DNA from: Bacteroidota bacterium | GTDB lineage: Bacteria > Bacteroidota > Bacteroidia > UKL13-3 | Direction: 5' to 3' | Assembly (NCBI GenBank): GCA_027488905.1 | Contig: JAIYAT010000035.1 | Span: 558,001 to 622,000 of the forward strand | Length of the DNA: 64,000 nucleotides | Shown here: piece after piece, positions 1-60,038 of the stretch | Layout: the number at the start of each line of letters is the position of its first letter | Numbering within the stretch: position 1 is the stretch's first letter | Notes under the pieces: model-generated | Seen by the model: the letters and a program-made list of their open reading frames with translations, nothing else | Told to the model about the DNA's origin: nothing | Database searches by the model: none | Translations under genes and position numbers: made by a program

Positions 1-440
1 ACAATGGCCAAGCCACCTTCTTTTAAATGGGCACTGCTACAAATGGTTTGAGCCAACAAAGCTATTTGGGATAAGGCATAAGGCGGGTCTGCAAAAATAA
101 TGTCATATTGCATTTTGTTTTGGTTCAAAAAGGCAAATGCATCCTGCTTCCTAGCCATTATTTGGTTCAAACCGAAACCTTTAGACGCTTGTTTGATAAA
201 ATTAATGCACCCAAAGTCTTGGTCGATACTTATTACTTCTGCCGCACCTCTAGAAGCAAATTCGAAACTTAAGTTGCCAGTGCCAGCAAATAAATCTAAA
301 ACCTGAATTCCGGATAAAGTTAATCTTGAATCAAGCATGTTAAATAAACTCTCTTTTGCTCTATCTGTAGTTGGCCTAACGGGTAATCCTTTGGGAGGCT
401 GAATTAATAAGCCGCTTTTTTCACCTCCAATTATTCGCAC
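1..440 (-). CDS. rsmD: 16S rRNA (guanine-N2)-methyltransferase RsmD, C-terminus cut by window edge
   Basis: SAM-dependent methylation of a guanine in 16S rRNA (G966 in E. coli). Reading leftward from a GTG at 440-438, the protein begins MRIIGGEKSG and carries the RsmD signature RPTTDRAKESLF (residues 22-33), the SAM-binding loop DLFAGTG (49-55) and the catalytic ADPPY (117-121). About 146 codons are visible; the usual length is near 180, so only the C-terminal part is missing. The GTG start overlaps the last codons of the upstream DUF3822 gene by 10 nt, which implies translational coupling. This rsmD/DUF3822 pairing is common in Bacteroidota. A GGTTCAAACC repeat lies inside at 164-173 and a one-base variant at 45-54. 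Confidence 0.9.
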   Translation of the reverse strand, partial: MRIIGGEKSGLLIQPPKGLPVRPTTDRAKESLFNMLDSRLTLSGIQVLDLFAGTGNLSFEFASRGAAEVISIDQDFGCINFIKQASKGFGLNQIMARKQDAFAFLNQNKMQYDIIFADPPYALSQIALLAQTICSSAHLKEGGLAI

Positions 441-1285
441 AATATTGCAGCAGATTCTGTGAAAAATTGATATTCTGCAAACTCTTTAAAACTGATAGGA
501 TAAGTGAAGTTCTTTGGTTTTATAGCAAACTGCACGCTCCTAACATATTTAGTTAATAAATTTTGCAGTGAAGGCAAAGTTGGTGAATTGCCATAAATGA
601 CAACATCGCAAGCATGAGAAATTTGAAGTTGTTCTGCTGAAGCCAACAAGAAATAAACTATTTCTGTTTCACTTTCAAAATCAAATGTATTATAAAAACG
701 AATTTGCTTATCAATGTTTAACAATTCGAAATATCCGGGATGAATATGCAAGTGCAACTTATTTGCGGCCTCAGAGAATTGCTGATGCTCTACTGCTTTA
801 ATAAACAACAAAGAGCCATGGTAAACATCAACCATTGGCATGTTGAAACGAATTAACTTAACCAATTCATTTCTTACATTAAACAAAACCGCAGTTTGCT
901 GAACATGCATTTTGCAATAAAGCACTTGAGAGTTTGGCAACAAATGATGGTTCAATTGGTAATAACTTTCCGTTTCAACCACGTTAAGCAAGGCATCTGG
1001 CACCAAAGTGCAATTTTTATCAGAAATAACAACCTTTCTTTCTTTATACTTAACCTTAAGTTCCTCCATCAAGGGAAGAATAGATTTAAGTTCATCATAG
1101 CTGAGCTGCAAAACATTATGATGAATGCCCGAAAAAACCTTCATTTCAAGGATTTGCTTGGCAATTGGATCAAACGTAACAGTGCTAATATGGTTGGGTG
1201 AGAAAAAGAGAATATTCGTCAACCTTTGGTTATCAGCTGAATGATATTGATTATCAGAATATGTTTTGATGTTTATGGATTGCAC
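431..1285 (-). CDS. DUF3822 family protein
   Basis: A 284-residue protein that I place in DUF3822, a Bacteroidota family with a distant actin/hexokinase-like (ASKHA) fold and no established function. Support is the length, the overall character (an N-terminal half resembling one beta-rich ASKHA lobe, with no signal peptide or membrane segment) and its place directly upstream of rsmD, where the family normally sits. Its stop codon is embedded in the rsmD start (GTGCGAATAA). The job is unknown; coupling to rsmD suggests something in ribosome biogenesis, but that is inference. Family assignment is from memory of the sequence pattern, without a search. Confidence 0.65.
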   Translation of the reverse strand: MQSINIKTYSDNQYHSADNQRLTNILFFSPNHISTVTFDPIAKQILEMKVFSGIHHNVLQLSYDELKSILPLMEELKVKYKERKVVISDKNCTLVPDALLNVVETESYYQLNHHLLPNSQVLYCKMHVQQTAVLFNVRNELVKLIRFNMPMVDVYHGSLLFIKAVEHQQFSEAANKLHLHIHPGYFELLNIDKQIRFYNTFDFESETEIVYFLLASAEQLQISHACDVVIYGNSPTLPSLQNLLTKYVRSVQFAIKPKNFTYPISFKEFAEYQFFTESAAILCE

Positions 1286-1338
1286 AATATTTCCTTCTTA
1301 CTTTCGCAAAGTAGTAAAACCAATACAAATAAAGAAAA

Positions 1339-1776
1339 GTGCAAGCATTTATCCCACAAAATCCAAATTTTGAGCAAATGATTAAAGACAAAATGGCTCA
1401 AAATCATTTCATGAATCATCTTGGGTTCAAACCTACCTTTATTGAGGCTGCTAAAGTCATTGGAATATTAGAAGTTAAGCCAGAACACAAACAACAAATA
1501 GGTTTTTTACATGGAGGTGTTACCGCTACCTTAGCAGATTTAGCTGCAGGATTTGCGGCTTTTACCTTGGTAAAAGAAGGTCAGACGCTAGTAACCATTG
1601 AAATGAAAGTTTCTTATCTCAACCCTGGTGTTGGAAGCCATGCTAAGGCCATTGGAAGTGTAGTTAAAATTGGCCAGAAAATGGCATTTGCGGAAGCAGA
1701 AATCTATTCTATTAACAATGATATAGAAACATTAATTGCCAAAAGCTCTGCAACTTATGCCATTCTAGATATTTAA
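1339..1776 (+). CDS. PaaI-type hotdog-fold thioesterase
   Basis: Small acyl-CoA thioesterase of the PaaI/YdiI hotdog superfamily, 145 residues, which is the usual size. The family hallmark is visible as GFLHGGVTATLADLAAG (residues 55-71), with the HGG turn and the acidic residue of the long central helix, followed by the strand TIEMKVSYLNPG. It probably hydrolyses aromatic or fatty acyl-CoA; the substrate cannot be read from sequence. The start is a GTG; the next in-frame ATG (1378) would remove the N-terminal strand. It is divergent from the DUF3822 gene, and a TACTTTCG box (1299-1306) lies in the 53-bp gap. Its stop codon abuts the convergent redoxin gene with no spacer. Confidence 0.8.
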   Translation: MQAFIPQNPNFEQMIKDKMAQNHFMNHLGFKPTFIEAAKVIGILEVKPEHKQQIGFLHGGVTATLADLAAGFAAFTLVKEGQTLVTIEMKVSYLNPGVGSHAKAIGSVVKIGQKMAFAEAEIYSINNDIETLIAKSSATYAILDI

Positions 1777-2855: not shown

Positions 2856-2963
2856 ATGCTTAAAAGATATCAAGTTAATAGGGCACAATATAATTAAATC
2901 AAACAAAATTAAAGAAAGCAACTTTATTTGTAAGTTGATAAATAATATCGAATCGAAATAAGA

Positions 2964-4382: not shown

Positions 4383-4385
4383 ACC

Positions 4386-5300
4386 ATGGGATACTTAGCT
4401 GCCTTTGCAACTTTAATCTGCTGGACAATTGCAACCTATGTATTTGCATTTGCCGCTAGAAAAGCATCACCAGCCTCGGTAAATAGGGTAAGACTTTTAT
4501 ATGCAGCCCTTGCCTTAAGCATTATTTGCTGTTTTTTATTCGGTTTGAACCCAATCGAACTTTTCACAAATATTAGTGCAGAGCAGTACTTATGGTTTGG
4601 AATTTCAGGTTTTATTGGACTAACTTTAGGAGATTATTTTGCATTTTCTGCTTTTAAAATTTTAGGCAACAGAAGAACAAGTTTATTCTCTTGTTTTGCG
4701 CCAGGTGCAGCATTTCTTGGGGCTAGTTTGCTGCTCAATGAACCCATTACTTTACAAGGAATTTTGGGCATGTTAATTTCTGTGGCAGGAATTCTAATCC
4801 TTGTCTTATCTAGAAAGGAAAAGGCAAATGTTAACCAAGAAGGGCATGGCAATTTTTTGGTCGGAGTTTTGTTCGGTATTCTTGGTGCAGTTGGGCAAGG
4901 TGTTGGATTAGTATTTGCAAAGAAGGGATTTGAAGTTTCTGCACCTAACTTCCATCCTATTTATGCCACTTGGGTGAGAATGTTAATTGCCTCCATAACA
5001 GTATATCTAATTGGCGCATTTAAGGTGAATTTATGGCAGGAGTTTAAAGACATTAGCTTCAATAAATCCATCAATAAACAAGTTCTATTAGGCACTTTAT
5101 TTGGACCGATGATTGGAATTAGTTTTTCATTGTATGCGGCCACCCATCTAGAAGCAGGCATTGCTCAAACCATTTTTTCTATGCTACCCATAACCGTTTT
5201 AATTGCAGCTGTGATTTGGTTCAAGGAAAAGATAAATCCAATTTCTTACCTTGCTGTGGCCATTAGTTTGGCAGGGGTTTTAATTCTTGTTTGGCGATAA
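4386..5300 (+). CDS. EamA/DMT-family transporter
   Basis: Inner-membrane permease of the drug/metabolite transporter superfamily, 304 residues with about ten hydrophobic helices arranged as two EamA repeats (roughly 1-140 and 158-304). Loops between helices carry the expected positive residues (for example SRKEKANVNQEGHG near 139-152). The substrate is not predictable. It sits 3 nt after the beta-CASP nuclease and 27 nt before the PolX-like gene. A GGTTTGAACC repeat lies inside at 4542-4551, encoding FGLNP. Confidence 0.85.
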   Translation: MGYLAAFATLICWTIATYVFAFAARKASPASVNRVRLLYAALALSIICCFLFGLNPIELFTNISAEQYLWFGISGFIGLTLGDYFAFSAFKILGNRRTSLFSCFAPGAAFLGASLLLNEPITLQGILGMLISVAGILILVLSRKEKANVNQEGHGNFLVGVLFGILGAVGQGVGLVFAKKGFEVSAPNFHPIYATWVRMLIASITVYLIGAFKVNLWQEFKDISFNKSINKQVLLGTLFGPMIGISFSLYAATHLEAGIAQTIFSMLPITVLIAAVIWFKEKINPISYLAVAISLAGVLILVWR

Positions 5301-5327
5301 AGATTTGGTTCAATACCTTGCAAGGGT

Positions 5328-8039: not shown

Positions 8040-8146
8040 ACGCGCATTTAATTGTAGGCTCAATATAATATGTTTAAATAAAAAAGCCACAGAAATTTGG
8101 TTCACCCAAAAATCTGCAGCCCTTTATCACTAAACAAACCCTAAAC

Positions 8147-9454: not shown

Positions 9455-9512
9455 TTTTTTTGGTTATTATTGTATTTGGTAGCTAGACACTTTGTTTGTC
9501 TCAAATCGGGCG

Positions 9513-10181: not shown

Positions 10182-11402
10182 TTTGTTTTTAGCCATGATG
10201 TATTTGCTCAAATATCTTGTACTTGCCATGGTATGATGCTGCAAAATCTGACCCATGAAATTTCCTTGCCTATGAACTTTTAAATTTAAGTTTAGCTCCT
10301 TCAAACCTTCAAAAAAGTTTGGTTCAAACCGTACCCTGCTAAAACTATTTTCTAGTATTTTTTTTCCGGTTTGAACCGATTCTGTCCAAAGCGTAATATC
10401 TGAATAAAGCAAACATGCTTTATAAGCAAATTCGTTTAAATCATTGGAAACAAAGCCAGGCCAATCCGAGTTACTTGCAATTCCTTCAGCACCAATAGAA
10501 GTGGTAACGGAAGGTGTTCCAGCTTGCATGGCTTCTAATAATTTCCCTTTTAACCCAGCGCCAAATAACATGGGAGCCAAACAAACTCTTGCCTTTTTCA
10601 TGACTTGTGCTACCTGCTCTGCCCTACCCTTTACCATAAATCCATCTTTCTCGCTATGCAAACTATTTAGTTTTTCATCGCAATAGGCTCCATAAATATT
10701 TAAGTTGGCTTCAGGTAGTTTCTTATGAATAAGTGGCCAAATTTTTTCTTTTAAAACTATTACTGCATGTCTATTTGGTTCATGGTAAAAGTTACCAATA
10801 AATATAAAATCCTTTCTTTCCTCAAAAATTGGAGAAGATTCATTTGTTGGTTCAAACCAAATTGGAAAATACCAAAGCAACTTTGAACTTATATTAAAGG
10901 TTTCTATGAGCAATGAAAGCTCATAAGTAGAAATAATTAGGCTTAAATCGCACCTTAAAATACTTGCAATTTCTCTCTTGGCAATGTCAGTTTGCATTTC
11001 AGCTAAGCTCATTTCTACGCCCTTCTTCACTGCATTATGCCTAGCCTTTCTTAAAAAATGCAGGTCTTCTGTATCTAAAATTTTAATGGCAGTAGGTAAA
11101 ATTTCAGAAACCCTCCAACCAAATTGTTCTTCAATCATAAATCGATCAAACAAAACTATAGTTGGGTTTAAAGCTTTAAGAAATTCATCAAAAGAATCAT
11201 CATTCAACTTTATTGAGCAAGTTTCAATCTCTAACTTAGCTAATGGGAATTCAAACTCACTGTGTTGTGCCGCAGAAGCAAAAACCACTTTATATCCATA
11301 ATTGGAAAATCCTTTTATCAATTGCATCATTCTTACGCCAGCTGCACTTGAATTTGGTTCAGGCCAAACAAAACCAATAATTAATAGGATGGGTCTTTCC
11401 AT
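10158..11402 (-). CDS. Glycosyltransferase, GT4-like (GT-B fold)
   Basis: A 414-residue cytoplasmic glycosyltransferase. The N-terminal Rossmann half begins ILLIIGFVWPEPNSSAAGVRM, a typical GT4 acceptor-site opening. The C-terminal half has IGNFYHEPNRHA and the nucleotide-sugar region APMLFGAGLKGKLLEAMQAGTP, with the GxGxKxKxxEAM pattern. Substrate is unknown. The last eight codons (KKSEDQIL) run into the stem of the shared terminator. It contains three GGTTCAAACC-type repeats (10321, 10369, 10849), the densest cluster in the window. It is divergent from miaE, 39 bp away. Confidence 0.8.
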   Translation of the reverse strand: MERPILLIIGFVWPEPNSSAAGVRMMQLIKGFSNYGYKVVFASAAQHSEFEFPLAKLEIETCSIKLNDDSFDEFLKALNPTIVLFDRFMIEEQFGWRVSEILPTAIKILDTEDLHFLRKARHNAVKKGVEMSLAEMQTDIAKREIASILRCDLSLIISTYELSLLIETFNISSKLLWYFPIWFEPTNESSPIFEERKDFIFIGNFYHEPNRHAVIVLKEKIWPLIHKKLPEANLNIYGAYCDEKLNSLHSEKDGFMVKGRAEQVAQVMKKARVCLAPMLFGAGLKGKLLEAMQAGTPSVTTSIGAEGIASNSDWPGFVSNDLNEFAYKACLLYSDITLWTESVQTGKKILENSFSRVRFEPNFFEGLKELNLNLKVHRQGNFMGQILQHHTMASTRYLSKYIMAKNKKSEDQIL

Positions 11403-14678: not shown

Positions 14679-14688
14679 GGTTCAAACC
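14679..14688 (+). repeat. Intergenic copy of GGTTCAAACC
   Basis: This copy lies 3 nt beyond the mltG stop codon, in context TTGGGTTCAAACCGATTT. It is one of four copies outside coding sequence, which shows that the motif is not a by-product of protein coding. Confidence 0.85.
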
Positions 14689-14691
14689 GAT

Positions 14692-15810: not shown

Positions 15811-17760
15811 TCAACTTAAAGTCTTCAACAAATTTTTCACCTCTTTATTGTTTGGATCTCTTTTCAATATCTTTTTCAATTGAAAAGCAGCCAATTTTTT
15901 GTTTCCTTGTAAATTATATAAAGCCGCTAGATTTAACAAAGCCTGAGGATGGTCTGGGTCTAATGCCAATGCCTTTTCATAACTTCTAAATGCCTTTTCT
16001 ATTGCCCCCATTTGAAGGTAACTAAATCCTAAATTAACCCAAGGTTCTACTTGTTTTGGATTCAAATTTAAACTCTCCTCCAGCAGTATATTGGCGGTTT
16101 GTAAATCACCTTTTTGTATGAATAAAATTGCCCTTTTGTTTTTAAACTCCAAATTAGCCTTAGCCAATTCTGAAGCCTTAGAAACATAGCTTAAAGCCTT
16201 TTCAAACTCTCCTAAATTCTGAAATGCCTGACCAATTCTATAGTTTGTCCATGCATCTGTAATTAAGTTAATGTCTTTTAATTCGGTTTGAACCAAACGG
16301 ATAATGCTGCTCCAATCTTCTTGGAGATATAATTTATGAATATTTAGTTGAATAGAAGGTACTCCATTTAAAGCTCGTAAAAAAAACTTTGCAGAGTCTA
16401 AGGCCGACCTTTCTCCATCAAACTTCTCATAATAATTTAAATAAGCTGCTGCTTTAAATATGGCACTAGTATTTGATTTATTAACACAATACAAGCCTTC
16501 AAAAACTTTAATTTTAGAAAGTTCCTTTTTAGCTACCTGAATTGCAATTTTATGATCGTGTACACTTACATGGGGTATATCAATTGAACCACTTCTTGGC
16601 ATATGGCAGCTCACACAATCGTTATTTGCTAACTTTAACTGTTGTGGTTGTTCTGTACAAGCTTTATCTGAATGACATTTAAGGCAAGCATTATTAAAAA
16701 TTTGTTTACCAGTTTCCTTTACACTCACATGCGGATTATGACAAGTAATGCAGGTTAAGGCCAAAGTTTCAAATCCTTTCTTGCCATCAGGTTTTAGGTT
16801 GCTTTTTTGGTTTGAACCTAAAAAACATTTACTCAATTGCAGTCGCTGTGCATGAGAAGCCATGATAAATTCGTCATCTCTGTCTTTGTATTTAGGCAGG
16901 TAAACTTCCATATATTCAGAAAGCACCATTCCTGGCCTAAAATCTGTAAACTTTTTTCCCTCTTTTAATACAGCATTGCCTTGCAAATGGCAACGTTGAC
17001 AAACATCTATTTGTAATTCCCAAGGCAACTTTCTAGGATTAACAATGGTGTAATCGATTTGGGTTGCTGTATCTACAATTATACCTTTTAGCTTTTCTTG
17101 AACATGCAATGAACCAGGGCCATGGCAACGCTCGCAATCAATACCGTCTGGAATAGAAACAAATTTGTTTACTGAACCTTCTTCTGCTTTGGGCATCGCA
17201 TTGTGACAACTCATGCATTCCATTTCTATGCCTCTGCTAAACCTTACATTTCTGCCGTTTTCGAAACCTGGAGGTAAATCCCATTTCCCTTTCTGAGCAT
17301 ACCAAGTGAGCGGCATTTGAAATATATAACCATTGATATTGGTCAAGTGACTATTGGTATGTTGGCCTGAACCGATGATATAATCCACACGCTCCGTTCT
17401 TTTAAAAACAGTATCTCTTCCATCCAAGCGAAACTCGGAAATATACATCGAATCGCCTTTCCAAAATGGCAGGTAATAGAAATCTAATGCAGCATCATAC
17501 AAAGGTTTATGCGAAAAATTAGCTGCAGATTTTTGTTTGGTAGCCGCACCAAACGATTGGCCCATGCCAGTTTTTATGAAAGAACTATAAATGTCTTCAT
17601 GGCATGAACGACATTGCTGCTTTCCAACATACTGAACAGCTGTATCATGATTGAGGTAAGCAAGCTTAGCAGATTTTACGGTATCCCCACAAAACAAATT
17701 GAGCAAACTTATGCAGGCGAGTAAACCAAATAGTGCCACATAAAAAAGGCTCCTTTTCAT
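15811..17760 (-). CDS. Seven-haem cytochrome c with C-terminal TPR domain
   Basis: An exported 649-residue redox protein. The N-terminus is a signal sequence (hydrophobic 5-23, with a Cys at 24 in a weak lipobox). Seven CxxCH haem sites are visible: CRSCH (50), CMSCH (~181), CERCH (~210), CQRCH (~255), CITCH (~337), CLKCH (~358) and CVSCH (~381). The spacing resembles cytochrome c554-type multihaem proteins. Residues ~430-649 are tetratricopeptide repeats (EKAFRSYEKALALDPDHPQALLNLA). The role is electron transfer at or outside the periplasm; donor and acceptor are unknown. It lies 9 nt after the rhodanese gene and contains two GGTTTGAACC repeats (16285, 16809). Confidence 0.85.
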   Translation of the reverse strand: MKRSLFYVALFGLLACISLLNLFCGDTVKSAKLAYLNHDTAVQYVGKQQCRSCHEDIYSSFIKTGMGQSFGAATKQKSAANFSHKPLYDAALDFYYLPFWKGDSMYISEFRLDGRDTVFKRTERVDYIIGSGQHTNSHLTNINGYIFQMPLTWYAQKGKWDLPPGFENGRNVRFSRGIEMECMSCHNAMPKAEEGSVNKFVSIPDGIDCERCHGPGSLHVQEKLKGIIVDTATQIDYTIVNPRKLPWELQIDVCQRCHLQGNAVLKEGKKFTDFRPGMVLSEYMEVYLPKYKDRDDEFIMASHAQRLQLSKCFLGSNQKSNLKPDGKKGFETLALTCITCHNPHVSVKETGKQIFNNACLKCHSDKACTEQPQQLKLANNDCVSCHMPRSGSIDIPHVSVHDHKIAIQVAKKELSKIKVFEGLYCVNKSNTSAIFKAAAYLNYYEKFDGERSALDSAKFFLRALNGVPSIQLNIHKLYLQEDWSSIIRLVQTELKDINLITDAWTNYRIGQAFQNLGEFEKALSYVSKASELAKANLEFKNKRAILFIQKGDLQTANILLEESLNLNPKQVEPWVNLGFSYLQMGAIEKAFRSYEKALALDPDHPQALLNLAALYNLQGNKKLAAFQLKKILKRDPNNKEVKNLLKTLS

Positions 17761-22627: not shown

Positions 22628-24274
22628 TTATTTTTTAATGATTAAATATGTTTTCTTAACTTTTTGGTCTCTAAACTTTTTTAGCAAAAACTCAGGGTTT
22701 AACTGGGTTACAGGGTAGGCGTTGTAAGTTGCTAAGGTATCAAATTCGGTTTGAACCAAAGTGTCAATTTCTTGCAAGGATTCGGCAGTAGCAGCCAAAA
22801 TTGCCCCAGAAGCTAAATTTTTTATCTCTGGTTTGGTTAGTAATGGAACTTTATTTAGTGTATAAAACCCAAAACTTCTATCATAAATCCCAAATCTATA
22901 AACTGCCTTTCCTTCATATTTTGCTGAAGCAAGGTCTTTGCCCATCTGTGAACTAAATTGGTATTTAAGCAGGTTAGGATAAAAATAAACAGACATTAAT
23001 AAACCAAAAACCCCAAATGCAAAAAGCTGTGAATGGTACCATTTTAAGTTTAATGATTTTGATTTTGCATAAAGAAAAACAAAGCCTAAAAAACCTGTAA
23101 CTAAGAGGAATATTGAGATGAAATTTGGGGTAAAAAAGAATGAAAAAGCAACAGCCACAGCTGCAAGCAAAAGCATATTCAAAGCAAATTGAAACGCTTT
23201 CATTCCTTTGAAAGTGGCTTTAAATTGAGGTAGTTTGTTACATATAAAATCAGCAGTAATAAGGGCAGCAAACGGGAAAATAGGAAAAACATAATGAGGC
23301 AGTTTGAACCGAGAGGCTGACAAAGCAATTAGAGGCAATAAAAAACCAAATAAAGAAACATATTCTGAGTTTGGTTCAAACCGAAACCTATTTTTAACTA
23401 AAGAAACAAGACGAATGATTAATGCTAATAAAAATAAGTGAAACCAAGGTTGCATGTCCCAAGCCATGGTATCAAAAAAGTAATGCCATGGTGCATGGTT
23501 GTCCCAATAAATATCACCTGTAATTCTCCCAAAGCTTTGCGTATAAAAGAAAAACAAAATGCCAGAAGGACCTTTTAAATCATACACTTCCTTTTCTGGA
23601 TGCAAGTCAAATTGATGGTAAAGGCCATATAACATGGGACCTAGCAAAATCCCTACAATTAGCAACATTAATAACCATTGCCATTTGAAAATAGCTTTCC
23701 AATCTTTTAAAACAAGCCAATGAAAACCTACAGCCATTCCAATAATAACCAAACCAATTGGACCTTTTGACATCATAGCTGCTGCGATTCCAATAGCTGC
23801 ACCTAACAAATAAATCCACCTTTTCGAATTCGCAAATTCAATGACTTGCCAAACTGAAAACACAATAAAACCGCTCAAAATGCCATCCGTTCTCACATCA
23901 TTAGTCATGAGTAGCCATGCGTTGTTAAAACACAAAAGCAATGCTGCTAATTGAGAAGTTTCTTCATTGTACCAATTCCTAGCAAGTTTGTATAATGAAA
24001 AAACACCAAGCAATAAAACTAACATGGCAGGTAGCTTGTAGGCCCAATTAGAAACCCCAAAAACCTTCATTGAAAATGCACTCAACCAAAACAACAAAGG
24101 AGGTTTGTCAAGGTAGTCATGCCCTTGGTCGTAAACTTCTAAATAGCTATTAGTTTGAAGCATCTCCAAAGAAATACTTGCATACTGCGCAGCATCAATT
24201 TCCATTACATCCAAGCGGAGGTTTAATACGAAAACAACCAGAATGAAAAGGAATAAAAATTTATTATACTTCAA
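22628..24274 (-). CDS. GT39-family (ArnT/PMT-like) glycosyltransferase
   Basis: A 548-residue integral membrane glycosyltransferase with about eleven helices. The GT-C signature is in the first periplasmic loop: MEIDAAQYASISLEMLQ (acidic catalytic residue) and YLDKPPLLFWL. Such enzymes move a sugar from a polyprenyl-phosphate donor to lipid A, protein or another envelope acceptor; which one is unknown. It lies 3 nt after the aldehyde dehydrogenase stop. Two GGTTCAAACC-type repeats are inside (22749, 23373). Confidence 0.85.
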   Translation of the reverse strand: MKYNKFLFLFILVVFVLNLRLDVMEIDAAQYASISLEMLQTNSYLEVYDQGHDYLDKPPLLFWLSAFSMKVFGVSNWAYKLPAMLVLLLGVFSLYKLARNWYNEETSQLAALLLCFNNAWLLMTNDVRTDGILSGFIVFSVWQVIEFANSKRWIYLLGAAIGIAAAMMSKGPIGLVIIGMAVGFHWLVLKDWKAIFKWQWLLMLLIVGILLGPMLYGLYHQFDLHPEKEVYDLKGPSGILFFFYTQSFGRITGDIYWDNHAPWHYFFDTMAWDMQPWFHLFLLALIIRLVSLVKNRFRFEPNSEYVSLFGFLLPLIALSASRFKLPHYVFPIFPFAALITADFICNKLPQFKATFKGMKAFQFALNMLLLAAVAVAFSFFFTPNFISIFLLVTGFLGFVFLYAKSKSLNLKWYHSQLFAFGVFGLLMSVYFYPNLLKYQFSSQMGKDLASAKYEGKAVYRFGIYDRSFGFYTLNKVPLLTKPEIKNLASGAILAATAESLQEIDTLVQTEFDTLATYNAYPVTQLNPEFLLKKFRDQKVKKTYLIIKK

Positions 24275-25720: not shown

Positions 25721-25730
25721 GGTTCAAACC
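25721..25730 (+). repeat. GGTTCAAACC copy between ALDH start codon and its -7 box
   Basis: The repeat touches the ALDH start codon (25718-25720). On the minus strand it reads GGTTTGAACC then ATG. Its GGTTTG supplies the last six bases of the -7 box TAGGTTTG. Confidence 0.85.
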
Positions 25731-25755
25731 TACTTAAACAAGTGCAAAACACAAA
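25725..25755 (-). promoter_or_regulatory. Consensus promoter of the ALDH-GT39-DUF3467 unit, apparently leaderless
   Basis: TTTG, exactly 19 nt, then TAGGTTTG: a full match to the Bacteroidota consensus. The -7 box ends 4 nt before the ATG, so the transcript should start at or next to the first codon. This is the best promoter in the window, and it shares bases with the iterated GGTTTGAACC motif. Confidence 0.65.
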
Positions 25756-25841
25756 ACTGGCTAGACAGTAACTTAAAATGTTTTTTTTATGAGAAAATTA
25801 AACCTTTTATCCTTACCTTTATCTTAAAGAAAACAAAAGGT

Positions 25842-32908: not shown

Positions 32909-34933
32909 ATGATGATTTCTCTACCCAAAAAAACCAAGGCTTTAATTATATTCTTTTTATTCTTTTGGAACTTCGCCTCCAAAGCTAACCCTATTGATTC
33001 CGCCTTAATAAAATCCCAATATTACTTAGACCATTCTAAACTTGATTCAGCCGAACTTTCTTTAAATTATCTTAATGAAAAGCTTGATATTGATAAAGCT
33101 AGTAAAGAACTATGTCAATTTTACAGAATTAAAGCAGATTTATATTTTAAAAGAGAAGATTTTTCGAATCAATTAAATTTTAAAAAACTAGCACTAGAAA
33201 TTGCTGAAAAACTCAAAGATAAGTCCCTTCAAGCTGATATTTACATTGATTTAGCATCTTATTATGAAACCATTCTAGAAATTAAAAATTCTATTCCTTA
33301 CCTGCTGAAGGCGCAAGAAATTTACACTGAACTAAATATTAAAGATAGACTTGCCCTAGTTTATAGCAAATTAGGCCTTTTACATTATGAAGAAGATAAC
33401 TTCAATCAGGCACTCACCTATTTTTTTGGAAGTTTTGTAATTTTTAATGAAATTAGGGATGAAAAACCTGAGTATGCTTATTGGGTTCAAAACAATCTCT
33501 TGAACATCGGTTTATGTCATCAACAATTGTTTAACCCTAGAAAAGCACTTGCCTATTTTAAAATAGCCCTAGCTTTTTGTCAAAATGCGAAGTTTGAACA
33601 GGAAAGGCCTATTGGTGTGATTTCTACAAACATTGGCGCTATTTATGGCGAGCTAAAGCAGTATAAAATCGCATACGAATATTTAAATAAAGGCCTAGCA
33701 GTATGCCTAAAGCCCGAAAAAAATGAGTTATACCATGGTGTTCAAACAATCATTTTTATTGCCACACTTAAAAGCATAGAAGGTGAATCTACAGAATCTA
33801 CAAATCTTTTTAAGCGTTCTAAATTTCTTATTGATAGTCTTCACTTTGGCGATTTAAATGAATATTGGCTCGTTCAGTTGTCTAAACACTATGCCCGCCA
33901 AAAGAAATTTGAGGATGCTTATGTTACCAAATTATTGCACCTTCAATTTAAAGACTCAGTTAATAAGGTAACAGGCAGAAATACCTTATCTAGGCAAATG
34001 CTAATATATAAGTTAGGCCAAGAAAAGGCAGAAAATGACCTCTTGATTGAACAAAGTAAGAATAGCAACCTTATCACAATTGGTATTTCTGGATTAGTGA
34101 TATTCTTGATAATAACCCAAATAATTGCAATTTATTTTTACAGAAAAATCAAGAACAATAATGCCCGCTTGCAGGAAATGAATAAACAAATTATGCAACA
34201 AAAGTTTTCTTTAGAGGCACTAAACCATCAATTACTTCAAGCCAATGATAATAAAACCTACCTAATCAAGACAATTGCACATGACCTTCGAACTCCAATT
34301 GGGAATTTGGTAAGTTTACAAAGTTTGTTAGATGAATACATACAAAAAAGTCCAGAAAGCGAAGAATACCAAAAATTAATCTCAAGTAGTTGCTTTATGG
34401 CAATGCACATCATTGAAGATATTTTGGATCAATCTGTTATTGAAAAAGGTATACTAACTTTATCTATGGAAAACATTTTAATCAATCCGATTATTAATGA
34501 TACAATAAACTTATTAAGATTTAGGTTTGAACCAAAACAAATTCAGGTAGTTACATTATTGGAAGAGGAAATAAGAATTTCAATTGATGGAGAACGCATC
34601 AAACGTGTGATTATAAATATTCTAATGAACGCAATTAAGTTTAGTCCAAGAAAATCAGTAATCCACATAAAACTTTTCCAAAAACAGGATAAATGTTTAT
34701 TAAGTATTTCAGATCAAGGCATTGGGATGACAAAAGATGTGATAAATAAGTTGTTTGATAAACACCAAAAAATAGGAAGAGTTGGTTTAGAAAAAGAAAA
34801 ATCATTTGGAATTGGATTAACAATTTCTCAATCTATAATTGAAGCCCATGGTGGAAAAATATTTGTAGAAAGCCAACCTAATTATGGTTCAACCTTTTAT
34901 ATAGAATTACCACTCTACAATTCTGAAGCTTAA
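32909..34933 (+). CDS. TPR-containing sensor histidine kinase
   Basis: A 674-residue membrane sensor. Signal sequence (1-26), a periplasmic array of tetratricopeptide repeats (~40-370), one membrane helix (~386-411), a coiled coil, then HisKA with phospho-acceptor H458 in IAHDLRTPIG and HATPase_c with N box NILMNAIKFSP, DQGIGMTKD and FGIGLTIS. No receiver domain is fused and no response regulator is adjacent, so the partner is elsewhere. It is followed 44 nt later by dnaX, which appears to have its own promoter. Confidence 0.9.
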   Translation: MMISLPKKTKALIIFFLFFWNFASKANPIDSALIKSQYYLDHSKLDSAELSLNYLNEKLDIDKASKELCQFYRIKADLYFKREDFSNQLNFKKLALEIAEKLKDKSLQADIYIDLASYYETILEIKNSIPYLLKAQEIYTELNIKDRLALVYSKLGLLHYEEDNFNQALTYFFGSFVIFNEIRDEKPEYAYWVQNNLLNIGLCHQQLFNPRKALAYFKIALAFCQNAKFEQERPIGVISTNIGAIYGELKQYKIAYEYLNKGLAVCLKPEKNELYHGVQTIIFIATLKSIEGESTESTNLFKRSKFLIDSLHFGDLNEYWLVQLSKHYARQKKFEDAYVTKLLHLQFKDSVNKVTGRNTLSRQMLIYKLGQEKAENDLLIEQSKNSNLITIGISGLVIFLIITQIIAIYFYRKIKNNNARLQEMNKQIMQQKFSLEALNHQLLQANDNKTYLIKTIAHDLRTPIGNLVSLQSLLDEYIQKSPESEEYQKLISSSCFMAMHIIEDILDQSVIEKGILTLSMENILINPIINDTINLLRFRFEPKQIQVVTLLEEEIRISIDGERIKRVIINILMNAIKFSPRKSVIHIKLFQKQDKCLLSISDQGIGMTKDVINKLFDKHQKIGRVGLEKEKSFGIGLTISQSIIEAHGGKIFVESQPNYGSTFYIELPLYNSEA

Positions 34934-38186: not shown

Positions 38187-39308
38187 ATGGAATCAATGCT
38201 TGGGTCAAACAGAAAAACACTTGTTGTATTGCTATCATGCCTTAATCTCTTTGGTTATTCGCAAATTACCAAGATTGAAATTTCAACACTTTATGGCCAT
38301 CATTTTGCGACAAATGTAATTGATAAAACCAAAGCTTCTTTGGATGGAACTATCAAAGGAATAGAATTTGGTTTCGGTAAAAATGGAATAGGAAAACCAT
38401 CCTATAAAAGCATTTACGGCGAACAAAAAGTAATGCTCAATTTTAGAGTAGCAGCCTTAAATAAAATAGATACTTTTGGGTATGCTTTTGGCATTTTACC
38501 AAGTATTCATATACCACTCAACATAACCAAAAATCAAGCATTGCGCGCCAAAGTTTCTTATGGGATAAATTTTAATACCCAACAATACAATAAAGAAACT
38601 AACTTCGACAACAGAGCTATTAGTTCACACATTAACTTTGGCCTTGATTTAGGATTAGATTGGGAAATCAATTTAAAGGAAAAATATTACTTTGTATTAT
38701 CACCAGGCGTTTACCACATTTCAAATGGTAGCATAAAAATGCCAAATGGTGGTATAAATTTATTATACCTAAAAGCAGGCTTCGGTTTGAACCGAGGGAA
38801 ACCAAACAGCGAAATTCTAAAACATGATTATAATTTGGATAAGAAAGCTTGGAAGTATTGGTTGTATGGATTTGCTACCCATAGAGAGTATAATTATTTT
38901 TCATACTTAGATAGGTTTTGGGTTTTTGGTTTGAACCAAAACATTCAATACCAGCTTAATAAACTATATTCTTTAGGATTAGGATTGGATTTCCATTATG
39001 ATGCAACGCAATCTTTAACAGATAAAACTAAAAAACTTTACCAAGTAAAAGAGAACGAGAAGTATTTAGTAGCAATTGGCATTTCTCAAAGATTTAGTTT
39101 AGGAAAGTTTTTCTTACCCTTTGGTGTGTATACTTATATTGCCCCATTAACATATATCAAAGAACCGCTGTACATTAGGTTTGGATTGGGTTATAACTTA
39201 GGGCCAAATTGGTTTATTGGAAGTTTCTTCAAAGGTACCATTAATGCAAAAGGCCAACTAAAAAGCGATTTTATGGAATGGAGCTTAGGGTATCGTTTAA
39301 GAAACTAA
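38187..39308 (+). CDS. Acyloxyacyl hydrolase / PagL-like outer membrane protein
   Basis: A 373-residue outer-membrane beta-barrel. After a signal sequence (to about residue 26, GYSQ), alternating hydrophobic strands follow. The PagL active-site signature HxSN is present as VYHISNGSIKMPNGGIN (~175-190), providing the His-Ser dyad and Asn. PagL removes the 3-O acyl chain of lipid A; the protein is longer than PagL itself (~185), with an extra C-terminal barrel-like half. Contains two GGTTTGAACC repeats (38784, 38929). Its stop overlaps the convergent COG3014 gene by 4 bp. Confidence 0.8.
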   Translation: MESMLGSNRKTLVVLLSCLNLFGYSQITKIEISTLYGHHFATNVIDKTKASLDGTIKGIEFGFGKNGIGKPSYKSIYGEQKVMLNFRVAALNKIDTFGYAFGILPSIHIPLNITKNQALRAKVSYGINFNTQQYNKETNFDNRAISSHINFGLDLGLDWEINLKEKYYFVLSPGVYHISNGSIKMPNGGINLLYLKAGFGLNRGKPNSEILKHDYNLDKKAWKYWLYGFATHREYNYFSYLDRFWVFGLNQNIQYQLNKLYSLGLGLDFHYDATQSLTDKTKKLYQVKENEKYLVAIGISQRFSLGKFFLPFGVYTYIAPLTYIKEPLYIRFGLGYNLGPNWFIGSFFKGTINAKGQLKSDFMEWSLGYRLRN

Positions 39309-41377: not shown

Positions 41378-41911
41378 ATGTTTTTACGCAACAAAGAAAA
41401 TAATTTCAAATGGAACTTTTCTTACCTTATAATAATAATATCATTAAGTGGCTGTATATCTCAAAAATCATACAAAGAAATCAACTTTAAAAAGGAAACA
41501 ATTTTGGTTGGCAGAATTTCTGAAACCAATTTAATGGAACATAAAAAAACAAAATGGTATATTGAAAACTACAATAAATATGTTCCTGATTCGCTTATAA
41601 TGATAAAGTTAAAGCAAAATTTGCCTGGAATCAATTTTATCATTTTTGGTGGAACTTGGTGCAGCGATACAAAAAGAGAATTACCAGCATTTCTATCAAT
41701 TTTGCATCAACTTAGTATTGGTTCAAACCGATATGATATGTGGATGCTTGACTTAAAAAAAGAAAGCACCTATATTAATCCTAAGCTTTATGACATTCAA
41801 TATGTTCCAACCATTTTGATTTATAAAGACGGAAAGGAAATAGGCAGAATTATTGAAAAACCTAAAGAAACCTTAGAAATGGACTTGCTGAAAATAATCT
41901 CAAATCCATAA
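41378..41911 (+). CDS. Thioredoxin-like lipoprotein with a CSDT active site
   Basis: A 177-residue thioredoxin-fold protein. ATG at 41378 gives a lipoprotein signal (IISLSGC, C26); the longer frame from 41285 overlaps the divergent lpoB-like gene and lacks a sensible N-terminus. The active-site position reads GTWCSDTKRELP, so only the first cysteine of CxxC is kept, followed by the cis-proline segment YVPTILIYKDG. A single-Cys site favours monothiol or structural roles over disulfide exchange. A GGTTCAAACC repeat lies inside (41720). Confidence 0.75.
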   Translation: MFLRNKENNFKWNFSYLIIIISLSGCISQKSYKEINFKKETILVGRISETNLMEHKKTKWYIENYNKYVPDSLIMIKLKQNLPGINFIIFGGTWCSDTKRELPAFLSILHQLSIGSNRYDMWMLDLKKESTYINPKLYDIQYVPTILIYKDGKEIGRIIEKPKETLEMDLLKIISNP

Positions 41912-41956: not shown

Positions 41957-41966
41957 GGTTTGAACC
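41957..41966 (+). repeat. Intergenic GGTTTGAACC copy upstream of the S41 protease
   Basis: Located 28 nt before the protease start codon, in context AAGGTTTGAACCAAAA, in the 83-bp gap after the thioredoxin-like gene. Confidence 0.85.
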
Positions 41967-46727: not shown

Positions 46728-47363
46728 TCAGAAAATGTAAACGAGTTTTTTGGTTTCGAAAAAAGGCTCATCAAACCAAGTGCTTAATGGGATTTCTTCT
46801 ACAACAAGCTTTTTATTAATCGACCTTAAGTCTTTCAACTCTTGCTTTAAATCGCCTCCTTTTAGGAAAATATAACCGTTAATTTTAGAATTAAACTCTT
46901 CTCTGTCATCTAAATAGCTTTGTGTCCAACGGTAAAGTTGCTCTGCAGGTGCAACTGCCCTTGCCGTTATAAAATGAAAGGTTTCTCTAAGGTTTTCCAC
47001 CCTTCCAATTGCAAAATCTGTATTTTTAAGGCCTAGTTCTTCTGAGATACCTTCGGCCACTTTAATTTTTTTTGCAATACTATCAATCATGGTAACCTCA
47101 ATTTCTGGAAAGAAAATAGACAAAGGAATGCCAGGGAAACCTCCGCCTGTGCCAATATCTAAAACCTTCGTATTGGGCTTAAATTGAATAAATTTAGCTA
47201 TGGCAAGAGAATGTAAAACATGTCGTTCATATAGTGATTCAATGTCTTTTCTTGAGATTACATTAATTTGTGCATTCCAAGTAGCATAGAGGTTTTGAAG
47301 CTTTTCAAAATGTTGCAATTGGGTTTGGTTCAAACCAGGAAAATATTTTAATAAAATATCCAT
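46728..47363 (-). CDS. rsmG: 16S rRNA (guanine527-N7)-methyltransferase RsmG
   Basis: A 211-residue SAM-dependent methyltransferase (GidB). LYERHVLHSLAIAKFI, SAM loop VLDIGTGGGFPGIPL and ITARAVAPAEQL are diagnostic. Start ATG at 47363 overlaps the GT2 stop as TAATG, indicating coupled translation; a TTG two codons upstream is less likely. A GGTTCAAACC repeat (47327) lies near the N-terminus, encoding PGLNQ. efp follows 43 nt downstream. Confidence 0.94.
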   Translation of the reverse strand: MDILLKYFPGLNQTQLQHFEKLQNLYATWNAQINVISRKDIESLYERHVLHSLAIAKFIQFKPNTKVLDIGTGGGFPGIPLSIFFPEIEVTMIDSIAKKIKVAEGISEELGLKNTDFAIGRVENLRETFHFITARAVAPAEQLYRWTQSYLDDREEFNSKINGYIFLKGGDLKQELKDLRSINKKLVVEEIPLSTWFDEPFFETKKLVYIF

Positions 47364-49124: not shown

Positions 49125-50279
49125 TCATGCCACTTTTTTTCGGTTCAAACCTAAATAAACTAAGGCTGTAATAGAAACCAAAACAAAAATTGAAGATATT
49201 ATTTCAGCTTGTGTTATTTCATTTCCAAATATGTGATAATTGGTATTTACCCTAATCTTTTCAATTAGAAATCGTTCTATTCCATTCAACAAAAGATAAA
49301 AGAAAAAGAATGTTCCAGGAATTGTAAATTTCTTCCTAATTACCCAAAGAAACAAAAATAAACCTATACAAGTAACCGCCTCATAAAGCGGTGTAGGGAA
49401 GACCCCATTGGGCAAGGCAGAGCAATGATTTCCAACACAACCCGGTATTGGAATTCCTTCATTTAAAACATTGTTTGGATAATTATAAGCCCAAAACCAA
49501 TCAGGCATAAAACTTAACCATTCTGGTTTAGGCATAAAATTTTCAATCCCCCAATCTCCATCTCCACTTAAATGACATCCAATTCTGCCAATTCCGTAAG
49601 AAAGCATCAATCCAGCGGCGGTACTATCACACATAACAAGTGCAGGAATTCCATTTTTCTTAGTATAATATAAGATACCTGTTGCCGCTACAATGAGCCC
49701 ACCATAAAAAGTTAAACCACTAAAAGAAATAAGCGCTCCAATTGGGTCAGCCATTAACTCATCTATATTTTCGAGGTTGTGAAATATTTTTGCCCCAAGT
49801 AATCCACCAATTGCAGCAATAGCAACAACAGTTCCCATTAATTGATGTGGGTTTTGGCTGACCCAAACTTCTTCACGCTTCTTTCCAATTAAAGCTTTTG
49901 CTTCTTTGTTTTTATAATAATAAGCGATTCCTCCACCTACAAGCGCGCCAAACCAGCTTCCTTTTGCACTTAATAAAAATTTTTGAGGGTTTTGAACCAA
50001 AGCATCATAATCGAGCACCATTTCTAGCAATTTGAAACCAATGAATGCACCAATGATTGTTTGAGTTATGATATCAACCAAAGTAATGGGTTCGTTTTGA
50101 ACCAATTTTACACGAATAGGCTGCAGAAGGCCGTTGGCTTCGAATCTTTTTAATTCTAAAGTTGTCACTTGGTATGCCGCCATAAAGGCAAGGGCCATAA
50201 AAAAACCAAAGGTTTGAATCGGCATGGGGATGTTCAGGCCGAACAAATCGAGTAATAGGTCTGATATTGTTGCGTACAT
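49125..50279 (-). CDS. lgt: Prolipoprotein diacylglyceryl transferase, Bacteroidota long form
   Basis: A 384-residue inner-membrane enzyme that moves diacylglycerol to the lipobox cysteine of prelipoproteins; several lipoproteins here depend on it. Seven or more helices are visible. The Lgt signature is divergent: [17 protein letters not shown] instead of GRxGNFxNxExxG, keeping the essential arginine. It is about 90 residues longer than E. coli Lgt, with an extra loop near 90-150 ([17 protein letters not shown]). Long Lgt-like proteins of this kind are usual in Bacteroidota. A GGTTCAAACC repeat (49142) falls near the C-terminus. Confidence 0.83.
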
Positions 50280-51353: not shown

Positions 51354-51482
51354 TATTGCCCAAAATTCAGGTATAAAGTCAGAATCACTAATCTTAATAT
51401 TTACTAAATTATTATGTTTTTTAGGCTCAAACCTTTATTTTGTGCGTGAATTATCTAAACTTAAAATATAAGTTAAAATCTT

Positions 51483-57002: not shown

Positions 57003-57013
57003 AAAGACAAACA

Positions 57014-57967: not shown

Positions 57968-57975
57968 AAAGGGGG

Positions 57976-57983
57976 TATCTTTG
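57976..57983 (+). promoter_or_regulatory. -7 box (TATCTTTG) of the ABC-F gene
   Basis: A perfect TAnnTTTG ends 11 nt before the ABC-F ATG. No TTTG at -33, so the call rests on the box alone. Confidence 0.4.
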
Positions 57984-57994
57984 CCCACCTTTTT

Positions 57995-59926
57995 ATGATT
58001 GCACTAACAAATATTGGCTTCGAATTTGGAGGCCGTTTTCTCTATCGGAATGCGAATTGGCACATTAAACCTAATGAACGTATTGGGCTTATTGGTCTTA
58101 ATGGTACTGGAAAATCAACACTTTTAAGGATTATCAGTGGAGAGTATACCTTAACAGAAGGTACCATGTCTAAGCCAAGGGATTTAACCATTGGCTTTTT
58201 GAACCAAGACCAATTAAGTTTCGATACAGATGATAGTATTTTAGAAGTTGCCTTAACAGCATTTTCAAGACAACTAGCTTTAGAAAAAGAGATAAATGAA
58301 GTTATTGTAAAGTTAGAAACAGACCATAGCGATGAAGTAATTCAGCGTTTGAGCGACTTGCAAGAAGAATTTGACAGGTTAGATGGTTATGATATTCACC
58401 ACAAAACAGAAAAGGTTTTAGAAGGTCTTGGGTTTACAACGCAACAATTGGCTCAACCCTTTAAAAAATTCTCTGGGGGCTGGAGGATGCGCGTTCTTCT
58501 TGCAAAAATGTTATTACAGGAGCCTAATTTGCTAATGTTAGATGAACCTACCAATCACTTGGATTTGCCAAGTATCATTTGGCTAGAGGAATACTTAAGG
58601 TCGTATCAAGGAACTGTGATAGTTGTGAGTCATGATAGGTATTTCTTAGACAAAATGGTGAGTAAGATTGTAGAGGTTAGCATGCAAAAGATATTTGAAT
58701 ATCCTGGCAACTACAGTTTTTATCTTGAATCAAAGCAAGAACGCATGGATTTGCAGCAGCGTTCTTATGACAATCAACAGCAGTTTTTTAAAGAACAGGA
58801 GAAATTAATCAATAGGTTCAAGGCTAAAGCTAGTAAAGCAACTATGGCGCAAAGTCGTATGAAAATGCTTGAACGTGTTGAAAAGATTGAAGCTCCAGAA
58901 GACGACAATAGAGAGATAAACATTCAATTTAGGGTTGGCGTAACACCAGGTAGAATGTTAGCAGAATTTAAAGATGTTAGCAAAGCTTATCCAGATGTTC
59001 CTATTTTAAACAAGTCGGAAGGAAGAATTGAACGCGGTGATAAAATTGCACTAATTGGTGCAAATGGAAAAGGAAAATCAACAGTCTTAAGGATGTTGGC
59101 TGGTGCCGAAAATTTTGAAGGAACCATTATTCCTGGGCATAATGTTAGGCAGGCTTTTTATGCTCAGCATCAATTAGAATCTTTAGGCTTAGGTAACGAA
59201 ATCTTACAAGAACTTCAAAACTTTGCCCAAGATAGAAGTGACACTGAATTGCGAACTGTTTTAGGCTGCTTTCTATTTGCAGGAGACGAAGTGTTCAAAA
59301 AAATAAAGGTGTTAAGTGGTGGTGAAAAGGCGCGTGTGGCATTAGCTAAGACACTTTTAACAGAGGCAAATTTTTTAATTTTGGATGAACCTACCAATCA
59401 CTTGGACATGCGCAGCATCAATTTGCTCATTCAGTCTTTACAAGGGTATGAAGGTTCTTTTTTGGTTGTAAGTCATGACCGATTTTTTGTATCTCAAGTA
59501 GCCAATAAAATTTGGTGGATAGAAAATGAGCAAATAAAGGAATACCCTGGAAGTTATGAAGAATATGAATATTGGAGAATTAAGAAAGAGGAAGAAGACA
59601 AATTAAAAAAATCTCAAGAGCCAGCAAAGCCAAAAGCTTCGGTTCAAGCGGTTATGGCTGAACCAAAAGAAGATAAAGCAAAAGCAAAGGTTAGCAATAA
59701 TTACATTCAGAATCTTAGAAAACAATTGGATGACTACGAGGCAAAAGCCAAAACCATACAGGCTAAAATCAAAGAAATTGAAAATGCATTTTCACTTCCA
59801 GAAAATAGCAGTGATGCTAAAATGAAGGATTTAAATAACTTTTATGAAGCAGAAAAAAAGGCTTTAAAACATTTAGAAAAAGAGATGGAAGTAATATTGG
59901 AAGAATTAATTGTTTTAGAAGATTAA
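57995..59926 (+). CDS. ABC-F family ribosome-associated ATPase
   Basis: A 643-residue soluble protein with two ABC domains and no membrane part. Walker A sites GLNGTGKST (~34-42) and GANGKGKST (~354), signature loops FSGGWRMRVLLAK and LSGGEKARVALAK, Walker B LMLDEPTNHLDLP and LILDEPTNHLDMR. A charged interdomain linker (~240-310) reaches the tRNA sites, and a coiled-coil C-terminal tail (QNLRKQLDDYEAKAKTIQAKIKEIE) follows, as in YheS/Uup-type proteins. Housekeeping translation factor is more likely than antibiotic protection. A bidirectional terminator lies downstream. Confidence 0.9.
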   Translation: MIALTNIGFEFGGRFLYRNANWHIKPNERIGLIGLNGTGKSTLLRIISGEYTLTEGTMSKPRDLTIGFLNQDQLSFDTDDSILEVALTAFSRQLALEKEINEVIVKLETDHSDEVIQRLSDLQEEFDRLDGYDIHHKTEKVLEGLGFTTQQLAQPFKKFSGGWRMRVLLAKMLLQEPNLLMLDEPTNHLDLPSIIWLEEYLRSYQGTVIVVSHDRYFLDKMVSKIVEVSMQKIFEYPGNYSFYLESKQERMDLQQRSYDNQQQFFKEQEKLINRFKAKASKATMAQSRMKMLERVEKIEAPEDDNREINIQFRVGVTPGRMLAEFKDVSKAYPDVPILNKSEGRIERGDKIALIGANGKGKSTVLRMLAGAENFEGTIIPGHNVRQAFYAQHQLESLGLGNEILQELQNFAQDRSDTELRTVLGCFLFAGDEVFKKIKVLSGGEKARVALAKTLLTEANFLILDEPTNHLDMRSINLLIQSLQGYEGSFLVVSHDRFFVSQVANKIWWIENEQIKEYPGSYEEYEYWRIKKEEEDKLKKSQEPAKPKASVQAVMAEPKEDKAKAKVSNNYIQNLRKQLDDYEAKAKTIQAKIKEIENAFSLPENSSDAKMKDLNNFYEAEKKALKHLEKEMEVILEELIVLED

Positions 59927-59954
59927 CCCTTAATAGAAATTGCTTTTTTAGAAA

Positions 59955-60038
59955 TTTCGGTTTGAACCTAAACTCTTCAGCAAAAAAAGGCTGCTCAAAA
60001 TTAATTGAGCAGCCTTTTTCATTTGGTTCAAACCGAAA
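59955..60038. repeat. Inverted pair of the iterated motif enclosing a terminator
   Basis: TTTCGGTTTGAACC at 59955-59968 and its exact complement GGTTCAAACCGAAA at 60025-60038 flank the terminator hairpin. The right copy ends one base before the htpG stop codon. The two 14-mers could pair in RNA as an outer stem or act as two convergent DNA sites. Confidence 0.9.
59984..60019. terminator. Bidirectional intrinsic terminator
   Basis: A 15-bp perfect stem, AAAAAGGCTGCTCAA / TTGAGCAGCCTTTTT, with a 6-nt loop; A- and T-runs make it work both ways, for ABC-F (+) and htpG (-). Confidence 0.92.

What the first reader, a model, noticed from the sequence alone, without database searches (positions are those of the whole stretch)
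164..60034. A highly iterated 10-mer, GGTTCAAACC, saturates this chromosome segment
Seen: 22 exact copies (both strands) in 64 kb, where base composition near 36% GC predicts roughly 0.1; the 7-mer core GGTTCAA/TTGAACC occurs about 60 times against about 8 expected (hand estimates). Copies are evenly split between strands, lie in different reading frames (VQTE, GLNQ, FEPN, GSN) and in intergenic DNA, so selection acts on DNA, not on protein. The motif is an inverted repeat GGTT-CA-AACC whose CA centre gives it direction, with consensus flanks TTT and GAAA. Known analogues in abundance are HIP1 of cyanobacteria, DNA uptake sequences, Chi and KOPS. The lack of strand bias argues against Chi or KOPS. 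Candidates are a methylase-linked iterated palindrome, an uptake or species-recognition tag, or a nucleoid/repair protein site. I know of no described example in Bacteroidota.
Basis: seen in the sequence. Interest (0 to 1): 0.88.

Follow-up and report, generated by a model that had tools for sequence, protein, structure and literature searches.

The report
Genus-wide iterated DNA tag with dialects
A short DNA word is scattered about 840 times through this bacterium's genome, is kept in place by selection, and changes its spelling from one sister species to the next, which is how DNA-uptake tags behave in a few unrelated bacteria, but the usual machinery for reading such tags was not found here.

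Summary
GGTTCAAACC occurs 22 times in the window and 839 times in the 3.55 Mb genome, against 36 for the reversed word. Among 64 family genomes and 395 drawn from the class (196 genera), strong enrichment appears in one genus only. Selection acts on the DNA: 105 in-gene copies face 7.8 in synonymous-codon shuffles, and against a sister species 23 of 36 aligned copies are identical where their own flanks predict 4.0. The element is a 16-bp imperfect dyad, TTTGGTTCAAACCGAA. Sister clades use other spellings, such as GGTTCGAACC and GGTTCAGRCC, in a mix that follows a one-gene tree; some conserved places carry another clade's spelling. No strand bias argues against Chi or KOPS. Two methylase families do not track it. 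The pattern matches DNA uptake sequences, yet no prepilin or pilus ATPase passed the cut-off in 62 family genomes. I favour an uptake or self-recognition tag read by a pilus-independent receptor (0.4); the main rival is a dimeric chromosome-binding protein (0.33). The reader protein was not found.

The parts
164..173 (+). GGTTCAAACC copy
1424..1433 (+). GGTTCAAACC copy
4542..4551 (-). GGTTCAAACC copy
10321..10330 (+). GGTTCAAACC copy
10368..10377 (-). GGTTCAAACC copy
10849..10858 (+). GGTTCAAACC copy
14679..14688 (+). GGTTCAAACC copy
16285..16294 (-). GGTTCAAACC copy
16809..16818 (-). GGTTCAAACC copy
22748..22757 (-). GGTTCAAACC copy
23373..23382 (+). GGTTCAAACC copy
25721..25730 (+). GGTTCAAACC copy, overlapping the start codon of an ORF (25719-27557, +) that faces away from its neighbour (24278-25720, -)
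30650..30659 (-). GGTTCAAACC copy
34524..34533 (-). GGTTCAAACC copy; sister species G007 has GGTTCAAGCC at the same place
38784..38793 (-). GGTTCAAACC copy, identical in G007 with changed flanks
38928..38937 (-). GGTTCAAACC copy, identical in G007
41720..41729 (+). GGTTCAAACC copy, identical in G007
41957..41966 (-). GGTTCAAACC copy, identical in G007
47327..47336 (+). GGTTCAAACC copy, identical in G014 and G007
49142..49151 (+). GGTTCAAACC copy, identical in G014; G007 has GGTTCAACCC
59959..59968 (-). GGTTCAAACC copy, identical in G014, lost in G007 (gaps in the alignment)
60025..60034 (+). GGTTCAAACC copy a few bases past the stop of an HSP90-like gene (60039-61847, - strand); the same gene end carries motif spellings in G014, G007, G018, G017, G004 and G012, within about 6 bp of this place

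Best explanation
The motif is a genus-specific recognition sequence: a 16-bp imperfect dyad TTTGGTTCAAACCGAA built from a strict arm TTGGTTC and a looser inverted arm. It has been driven to hundreds of copies and is held at individual places by selection or biased gene flow. Most likely it is a DNA-uptake or self-recognition tag. Shown here: abundance, genus restriction, DNA-level constraint, dyad anatomy, and dialects that follow a one-gene tree and in some cases occupy the same places. Inferred: that uptake is the driver, and that a receptor independent of type IV pili exists.
For: Copy number and genus restriction: 46-1318 copies in the 19 genomes of genus g1, at most 34 in any of the class genomes outside the family. 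Both strands equal, 63 and 67. All five open reading frames used. In-gene copies 105 against 7.8 in 40 synonymous-codon shuffles. Orthologous copies kept 23 of 36 against 4.0 expected from flanks (P about 7e-14). Dialects congruent with a one-gene tree: the CG-centre share is 4-5% in G000/G014/G007/G003, 79-83% in G011/G015/G016, 32-36% in G012/G017/G004, 20-22% in G013/G018. Some conserved places carry another spelling. Denser in convergent gaps (1.6-2.7/kb) than in divergent gaps (0.25-0.65/kb) in three species, and 64 of 105 in-gene copies lie in the outer quarters of genes (P = 0.03); Pasteurellaceae uptake sequences also lean to gene ends (PMC2346458, passages). Neisseriaceae uptake sequences form tree-congruent dialects, and in S. 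muelleri 1294 lie as overlapping dyads (PMC3630211, passages). In Bacteroidota, Riemerella anatipestifer transformation needs ComEC, DprA, ComF and RecA plus proteins without homology to known transformation machinery (PMC8459023, passages), and R. columbina favours its own DNA (PMC7965970, passages).
Against: No transformation data exist for this genus. The known tag systems use type IV pili (PMC7965970, passages), and no prepilin (PF07963) or pilus/T2SS ATPase (PF00437) passed the cut-off in 62 genomes; 40 of the 62 had weak PF00437 matches below the cut-off, which I take for other AAA ATPases without having checked. CA and TG centres interchange at two orthologous places, which equally fits a homodimer acting inside the cell. 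One-armed copies show only modest excess in G000 (53 against 32.1) once near-complete arms are removed. No reader gene was identified. Competence genes themselves were not searched for.
Confidence: 0.4

Rival explanations
1. Site of an abundant dimeric DNA-binding protein inside the cell (a sequence-specific nucleoid, segregation or repair protein) with roughly a thousand sites per chromosome, avoided near promoters and kept by selection.
For: Dyad symmetry with degenerate positions in mirror places and CA/TG/CG exchange at the centre. Strong site-by-site conservation. Low density in divergent gaps. Dialects could follow drift of the protein.
Against: I know of no nucleoid protein with so long a site and so many copies (recalled, no call). 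Spacing is random on one stretch and mildly clustered on the other, not regular. The two arms are not equivalent: TTGGTTCAA exceeds expectation without the right arm (135 against 45.1) while TCGGTTTGA alone does not (5 against 5.9), though the first excess shrinks when near-complete right arms are removed. Density differs more than tenfold between species of the genus.
Confidence: 0.33
2. A highly iterated palindrome of the HIP1 kind, created or kept through DNA methylation and mismatch repair.
For: Near-palindrome in all open reading frames and both strands; alternate forms in sister species, as with alternate HIPs (PMC4390886, abstract).
Against: PF00145 methylases pass the cut-off in 5 of 17 genus genomes searched and are not detected in motif-rich G005 and G007. 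PF01555 passes in 6 of 17 and not in G000, G007 or G005. The main form in G000 is not a true palindrome. Other methylase classes (D12, HsdM, Eco57I) were not tested.
Confidence: 0.12
3. Transcription-related element (terminator part or regulator site).
For: Denser in convergent gaps; by eye, one pair flanks a terminator-like hairpin downstream of the HSP90-like gene.
Against: 105 of 130 strict copies lie inside predicted genes, on both strands; no sign of covariation between the facing variable positions 2 and 7; low density in divergent gaps.
Confidence: 0.06
4. Chi- or KOPS-like polar signal.
For: Iterated, genome-wide.
Against: No strand bias over 464 kb (63 and 67, P = 0.79); copy number varies widely within one genus. 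The origin was not located.
Confidence: 0.02

Closest known systems
DNA uptake sequence (DUS) and its dialects, Neisseriaceae
   Same: Hundreds to thousands of copies; clade-specific dialects congruent with phylogeny; dyad-arranged pairs in S. muelleri (PMC3630211, passages).
   Different: Sequence unrelated; no type IV pilin or pilus ATPase passed the cut-off here, so a ComP-type receptor is not expected; uptake not tested.
Uptake signal sequence (USS), Pasteurellaceae
   Same: About 10-bp core plus an A-rich side; lean to gene ends (PMC2346458, passages; here); clade-restricted.
   Different: The USS core is not a dyad (recalled); pilus-based uptake. PMC2346458 reports one favoured orientation in the reading frame; here 63 copies run with and 42 against the gene (P = 0.05), but one frame is closed by a stop in the second case.
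HIP1 and alternate HIPs, cyanobacteria
   Same: Near-palindrome, iterated, with alternates in sister lineages.
   Different: HIPs go with cognate methylases (PMC4390886, abstract); here two methylase families do not track the motif, and the main G000 form is asymmetric at its centre.
Chi and KOPS
   Same: Short and genome-wide.
   Different: They are strand-biased (recalled); this is not.

Membership tests
DNA uptake sequence | Large excess over chance, genome-wide, both strands | tested here: met
   839 against 36 for the reversed word; 63/67 strands
DNA uptake sequence | Restricted to one clade, with dialects following phylogeny | tested here: met
   the tree rests on one gene and 17 of the 19 genomes
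DNA uptake sequence | Preferential uptake of DNA carrying the motif | not testable with these tools
   Needs a cultured, transformable strain
DNA uptake sequence | Type IV pilus machinery with a receptor pilin (known cases) | tested here: not met
   PF07963 0 of 62 genomes, 8 of 14 controls positive; PF00437 over cut-off 0 of 62, 13 of 14 controls over it, weak matches below it in 40 of 62
DNA uptake sequence | Competence proteins ComEC and DprA present | not tested
HIP1-type palindrome | True palindrome | tested here: inconclusive
   GGTTCGAACC dominates in G011/G015/G016, the asymmetric GGTTCAAACC in G000 and relatives
HIP1-type palindrome | Cognate methylase present where the motif is abundant | tested here: not met
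   PF00145 and PF01555 only, 17 of the 19 genus genomes; other classes not tested
Chi/KOPS | Orientation bias along the replichore | tested here: not met
   63/67 over 464 kb; genome 404/435; origin not located

The most novel reading that the evidence does not exclude
A sequence-specific DNA-uptake (self-recognition) system of Bacteroidota that works without type IV pili, with its own dyad-shaped tag and species dialects, read by a receptor of a kind not yet described.
Probability: 0.35. Interest if true: 0.92.

Novelty: new variant of a known kind. Interest (0 to 1): 0.78.

Why it matters
Iterated tags with dialects are known to me from few lineages. One in Bacteroidota where no pilus machinery was found would either reveal a new way to recognise kin DNA, or show that a chromosome-binding protein can mark a genome as heavily as an uptake tag does. 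R. columbina prefers its own DNA and its candidate tag words are untested (PMC7965970, passages), so a concrete motif makes the question testable. The tree-congruent spellings also give a natural experiment for finding the reader protein: it should be present in the motif-rich clades, absent in the other genera, and perhaps altered or lost in G002/G008, where copies are few.

Tried and rejected
tRNA T-arm (the word resembles GGTTCAAATCC, recalled): ARAGORN finds no tRNA in the window, and one base is missing from the loop. Protein-level cause: rejected by the synonymous-codon shuffle, 7.8 expected against 105. Paired-hairpin RNA or ssDNA element: no sign of covariation at facing positions 2 and 7. 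Regular chromosomal spacing: gaps are random on C32 (CV 0.98) and, if anything, clustered on C1 (CV 1.25). Difference in gene position between the two orientations: none (P = 0.81). Viruses: the 17-mer TTTGGTTCAAACCGAAA gives two single matches in the IMG/VR scan. The EM run on control seeds (reversed PWM) drifted to other patterns, one of them the motif itself, so EM site totals are given no weight. Motif density in DNA not shared with G007 was uninformative, since the one long unshared run lies at the end of the G007 contig. Printed reports: searches list no paper that I recognised as describing this word or a dialect as a genome-wide bacterial motif; most hits were seen only as listings (20 of the 27 papers that hold the literal word), so absence is not proven.

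Full report
Observation. GGTTCAAACC occurs 22 times in the 64 kb window, 11 per strand, at the stated places; shuffles give 0.18. In the genome it occurs 404+435 times in 3.55 Mb, against 15+21 for the word read backwards. In a 464 kb stretch there are 130 copies against 3.1, 8.5 and 21.6 expected at Markov orders 4, 5 and 6 (and 67 at order 7, which largely contains the word itself). The organism is a Bacteroidota member: window proteins carry type IX secretion and SprB domains, and the named relatives of its RarA are mostly Bacteroidota, the best at 67% identity. The genus is unnamed here; the tools give its family and class only as numbers, and I take the class to be Bacteroidia.

Distribution. 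All 64 held genomes of its family were counted; an order-wide search returned the same 64. The 19 genomes of genus g1 hold 46 to 1318 copies (the lowest, G016, is 68% complete). Genus g3 shows a faint excess (G024 53 against 22 control, G025 22 against 10, G026 19 against 8, G027 16 against 8). The other genera are at background. In 395 genomes drawn from the class, 196 genera, no genome outside the family exceeds 34 copies. The element is thus an innovation of one genus, or of its stem.

Anatomy. Flanks and one-off neighbours give T-n-GG-n-T-CA-A-n-CC-n-A, with preferred flanks TTT and GAAA. The tolerated positions are placed as mirror images. Of 139 sites of the form GGTTNNAACC in 464 kb, 130 have a CA/TG centre, 1 has CG and none has TA or GC. 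Facing variable positions 2 and 7 show no sign of covariation. The left arm is the stricter: in 648.5 kb TTGGTTCAA without a following nCC is in excess (135 against 45.1) while TCGGTTTGA without it is not (5 against 5.9). With both right-arm C positions absent, the excess of TTGGTTCAA shrinks to 53 against 32.1 in G000, while TTGGTTCAG stays clear in G012 (13 against 3.2) and G001 (16 against 2.9).

Selection on DNA. Within predicted genes 105 copies stand against a mean of 7.8 (maximum 12) in 40 synonymous-codon shuffles. All five frames that avoid the TGA stop are used. Aligned to G007 (77% nucleotide identity), 36 strict copies of G000 can be compared: 23 are fully identical where their own flanks predict 4.0 (P about 7e-14). 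Of the other 13, three differ only at the tolerated eighth base, two have a CG centre, one has the centre turned to TG, and seven are otherwise changed, one of them by gaps. For the looser dyad 29 of 42 are kept, against 4 of 10 for a permuted dyad; this control is small and the difference not significant (P = 0.14). Over, two aligned sites have CA in one species and TG in the other, and three have CG in G007. The dyad as a whole is therefore what appears to be kept.

Dialects. GGTTCGAACC, the true palindrome, occurs 300, 272 and 186 times in G011, G015 and G016, where GGTTCAAACC is rare (60, 71, 46), and 34 times in G000; outside the genus it occurs 0-4 times in the 45 other family genomes. 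The CG-centre share is nearly constant within clades of the tree of an HSP90-like protein: 4-5% in G000/G014/G007/G003, 79-83% in G011/G015/G016, 32-36% in G012/G017/G004, 20-22% in G013/G018 (17 of 19 genomes). Of the rest, G005 has 7%, G002/G008 4-6%, G001 44%, G010 48%, and G006 and G009 31% (not in the tree). G002 and G008 are low in both forms (23-35 and 1-2 copies per Mb), and no motif k-mer stands out in 169 kb of G008; still, their 90 and 151 copies exceed the 7 and 6 of the reversed word, so the motif is thinned there, not gone. G012 favours GGTTCAGACC and GGTTCAGGCC. At the end of the HSP90-like gene, G000, G014 and G007 read TCGGTTTGAACCAA a few bases past the stop; G018 reads TCGGTTTGAACCGA, G017 TCGGCTTGAACCGA, and G004 and G012 TCGGCCTGAACCGA, with the motif's TGA lying in frame as the likely stop, about 5-6 bp from the place in G000 (the last two read by eye). 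Five further genomes with enough sequence show no such dyad there (G001, G002, G005, G008, G010); for five others (G003, G011, G013, G015, G016) too little sequence was held, and G006 and G009 were not fetched there. In coding segments of eight genus species other than G007, 14 of 47 aligned pairs of a G000 strict copy and its counterpart fall on a motif form, with 0.04 expected by displacement; part of this may be protein constraint, and one G000 copy can count in several species. Three copies aligned in the outgroup G062 gave none.

Placement. With the pattern GG.T(CA|TG|CG)A.CC, convergent gaps hold 2.71, 1.89 and 1.62 sites per kb in G000, G005 and G007 (14, 9 and 3 sites), divergent gaps 0.65, 0.31 and 0.25 (7, 2 and 1 sites), genes 0.41, 0.42 and 0.30. 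Within genes 64 of 105 strict copies lie in the outer quarters (P = 0.03). Spacing is random on the 500 kb stretch and slightly clustered on the other. Strands are equal, 63 and 67.

Who reads it. No gene was found. Prepilins (PF07963) were seen in 0 of 62 family genomes, with 8 of 14 control genomes positive. Pilus or T2SS ATPases (PF00437) passed the cut-off in 0 of 62, with 13 of 14 controls over it; 40 of 62 had weak matches below it, which I take for other AAA ATPases without a check. C5 methylases pass in 5 of 17 genus genomes searched and are not detected in G005 and G007. N6/N4 methylases pass in 6 of 17 and not in G000, G007 or G005. The draw for these family searches left out G001 and G016.

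Interpretation. The fingerprint (clade-restricted excess, dialects congruent with phylogeny, both strands, gene-end preference) is that of uptake sequences (PMC3630211, PMC2346458; passages), including dyad arrangement in S. muelleri. Known cases use type IV pili, which this family appears to lack. Transformation in Riemerella, also Bacteroidota, involves ComEC, DprA, ComF, RecA and proteins without homology to well-characterised machinery (PMC8459023, passages), and R. columbina prefers its own DNA while its candidate tag words are untested (PMC7965970, passages). I therefore rank an uptake tag with a pilus-independent receptor first (0.4), a dimeric chromosome-binding protein second (0.33) and a HIP-like methylation role third (0.12).

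Noticed in passing
G000:C32 about 541941-542360 (locus L059, next to the window): A tandem array of 22-bp units of two related types in a row (AGTAGCTTCGCACC and ACCCAAATGGTGGG words, eight exact copies each).
   Followed up: partly
G062:C1:100001-200000 (L075-L079): Nineteen copies of CCCGATAGCTATC or its complement in 100 kb, nearly all in L078, where the listed ones are spaced by about 410 and then 80 bases.
   Followed up: partly
G008 sampled loci L092-L099, L201: Strong excess of ATGTACGATGTA- and ACTCATAACTCA-type words, apparently tandem, unrelated to the motif.
   Followed up: no
G012 sampled loci L070-L074, L195, L216-L219: Excess of AATTACG-type words (CGTAATTCGTAA), apparently tandem.
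   Followed up: no
window 15811-17760 (-): Predicted protein with both multiheme cytochrome motifs and TPR repeats.
   Followed up: no
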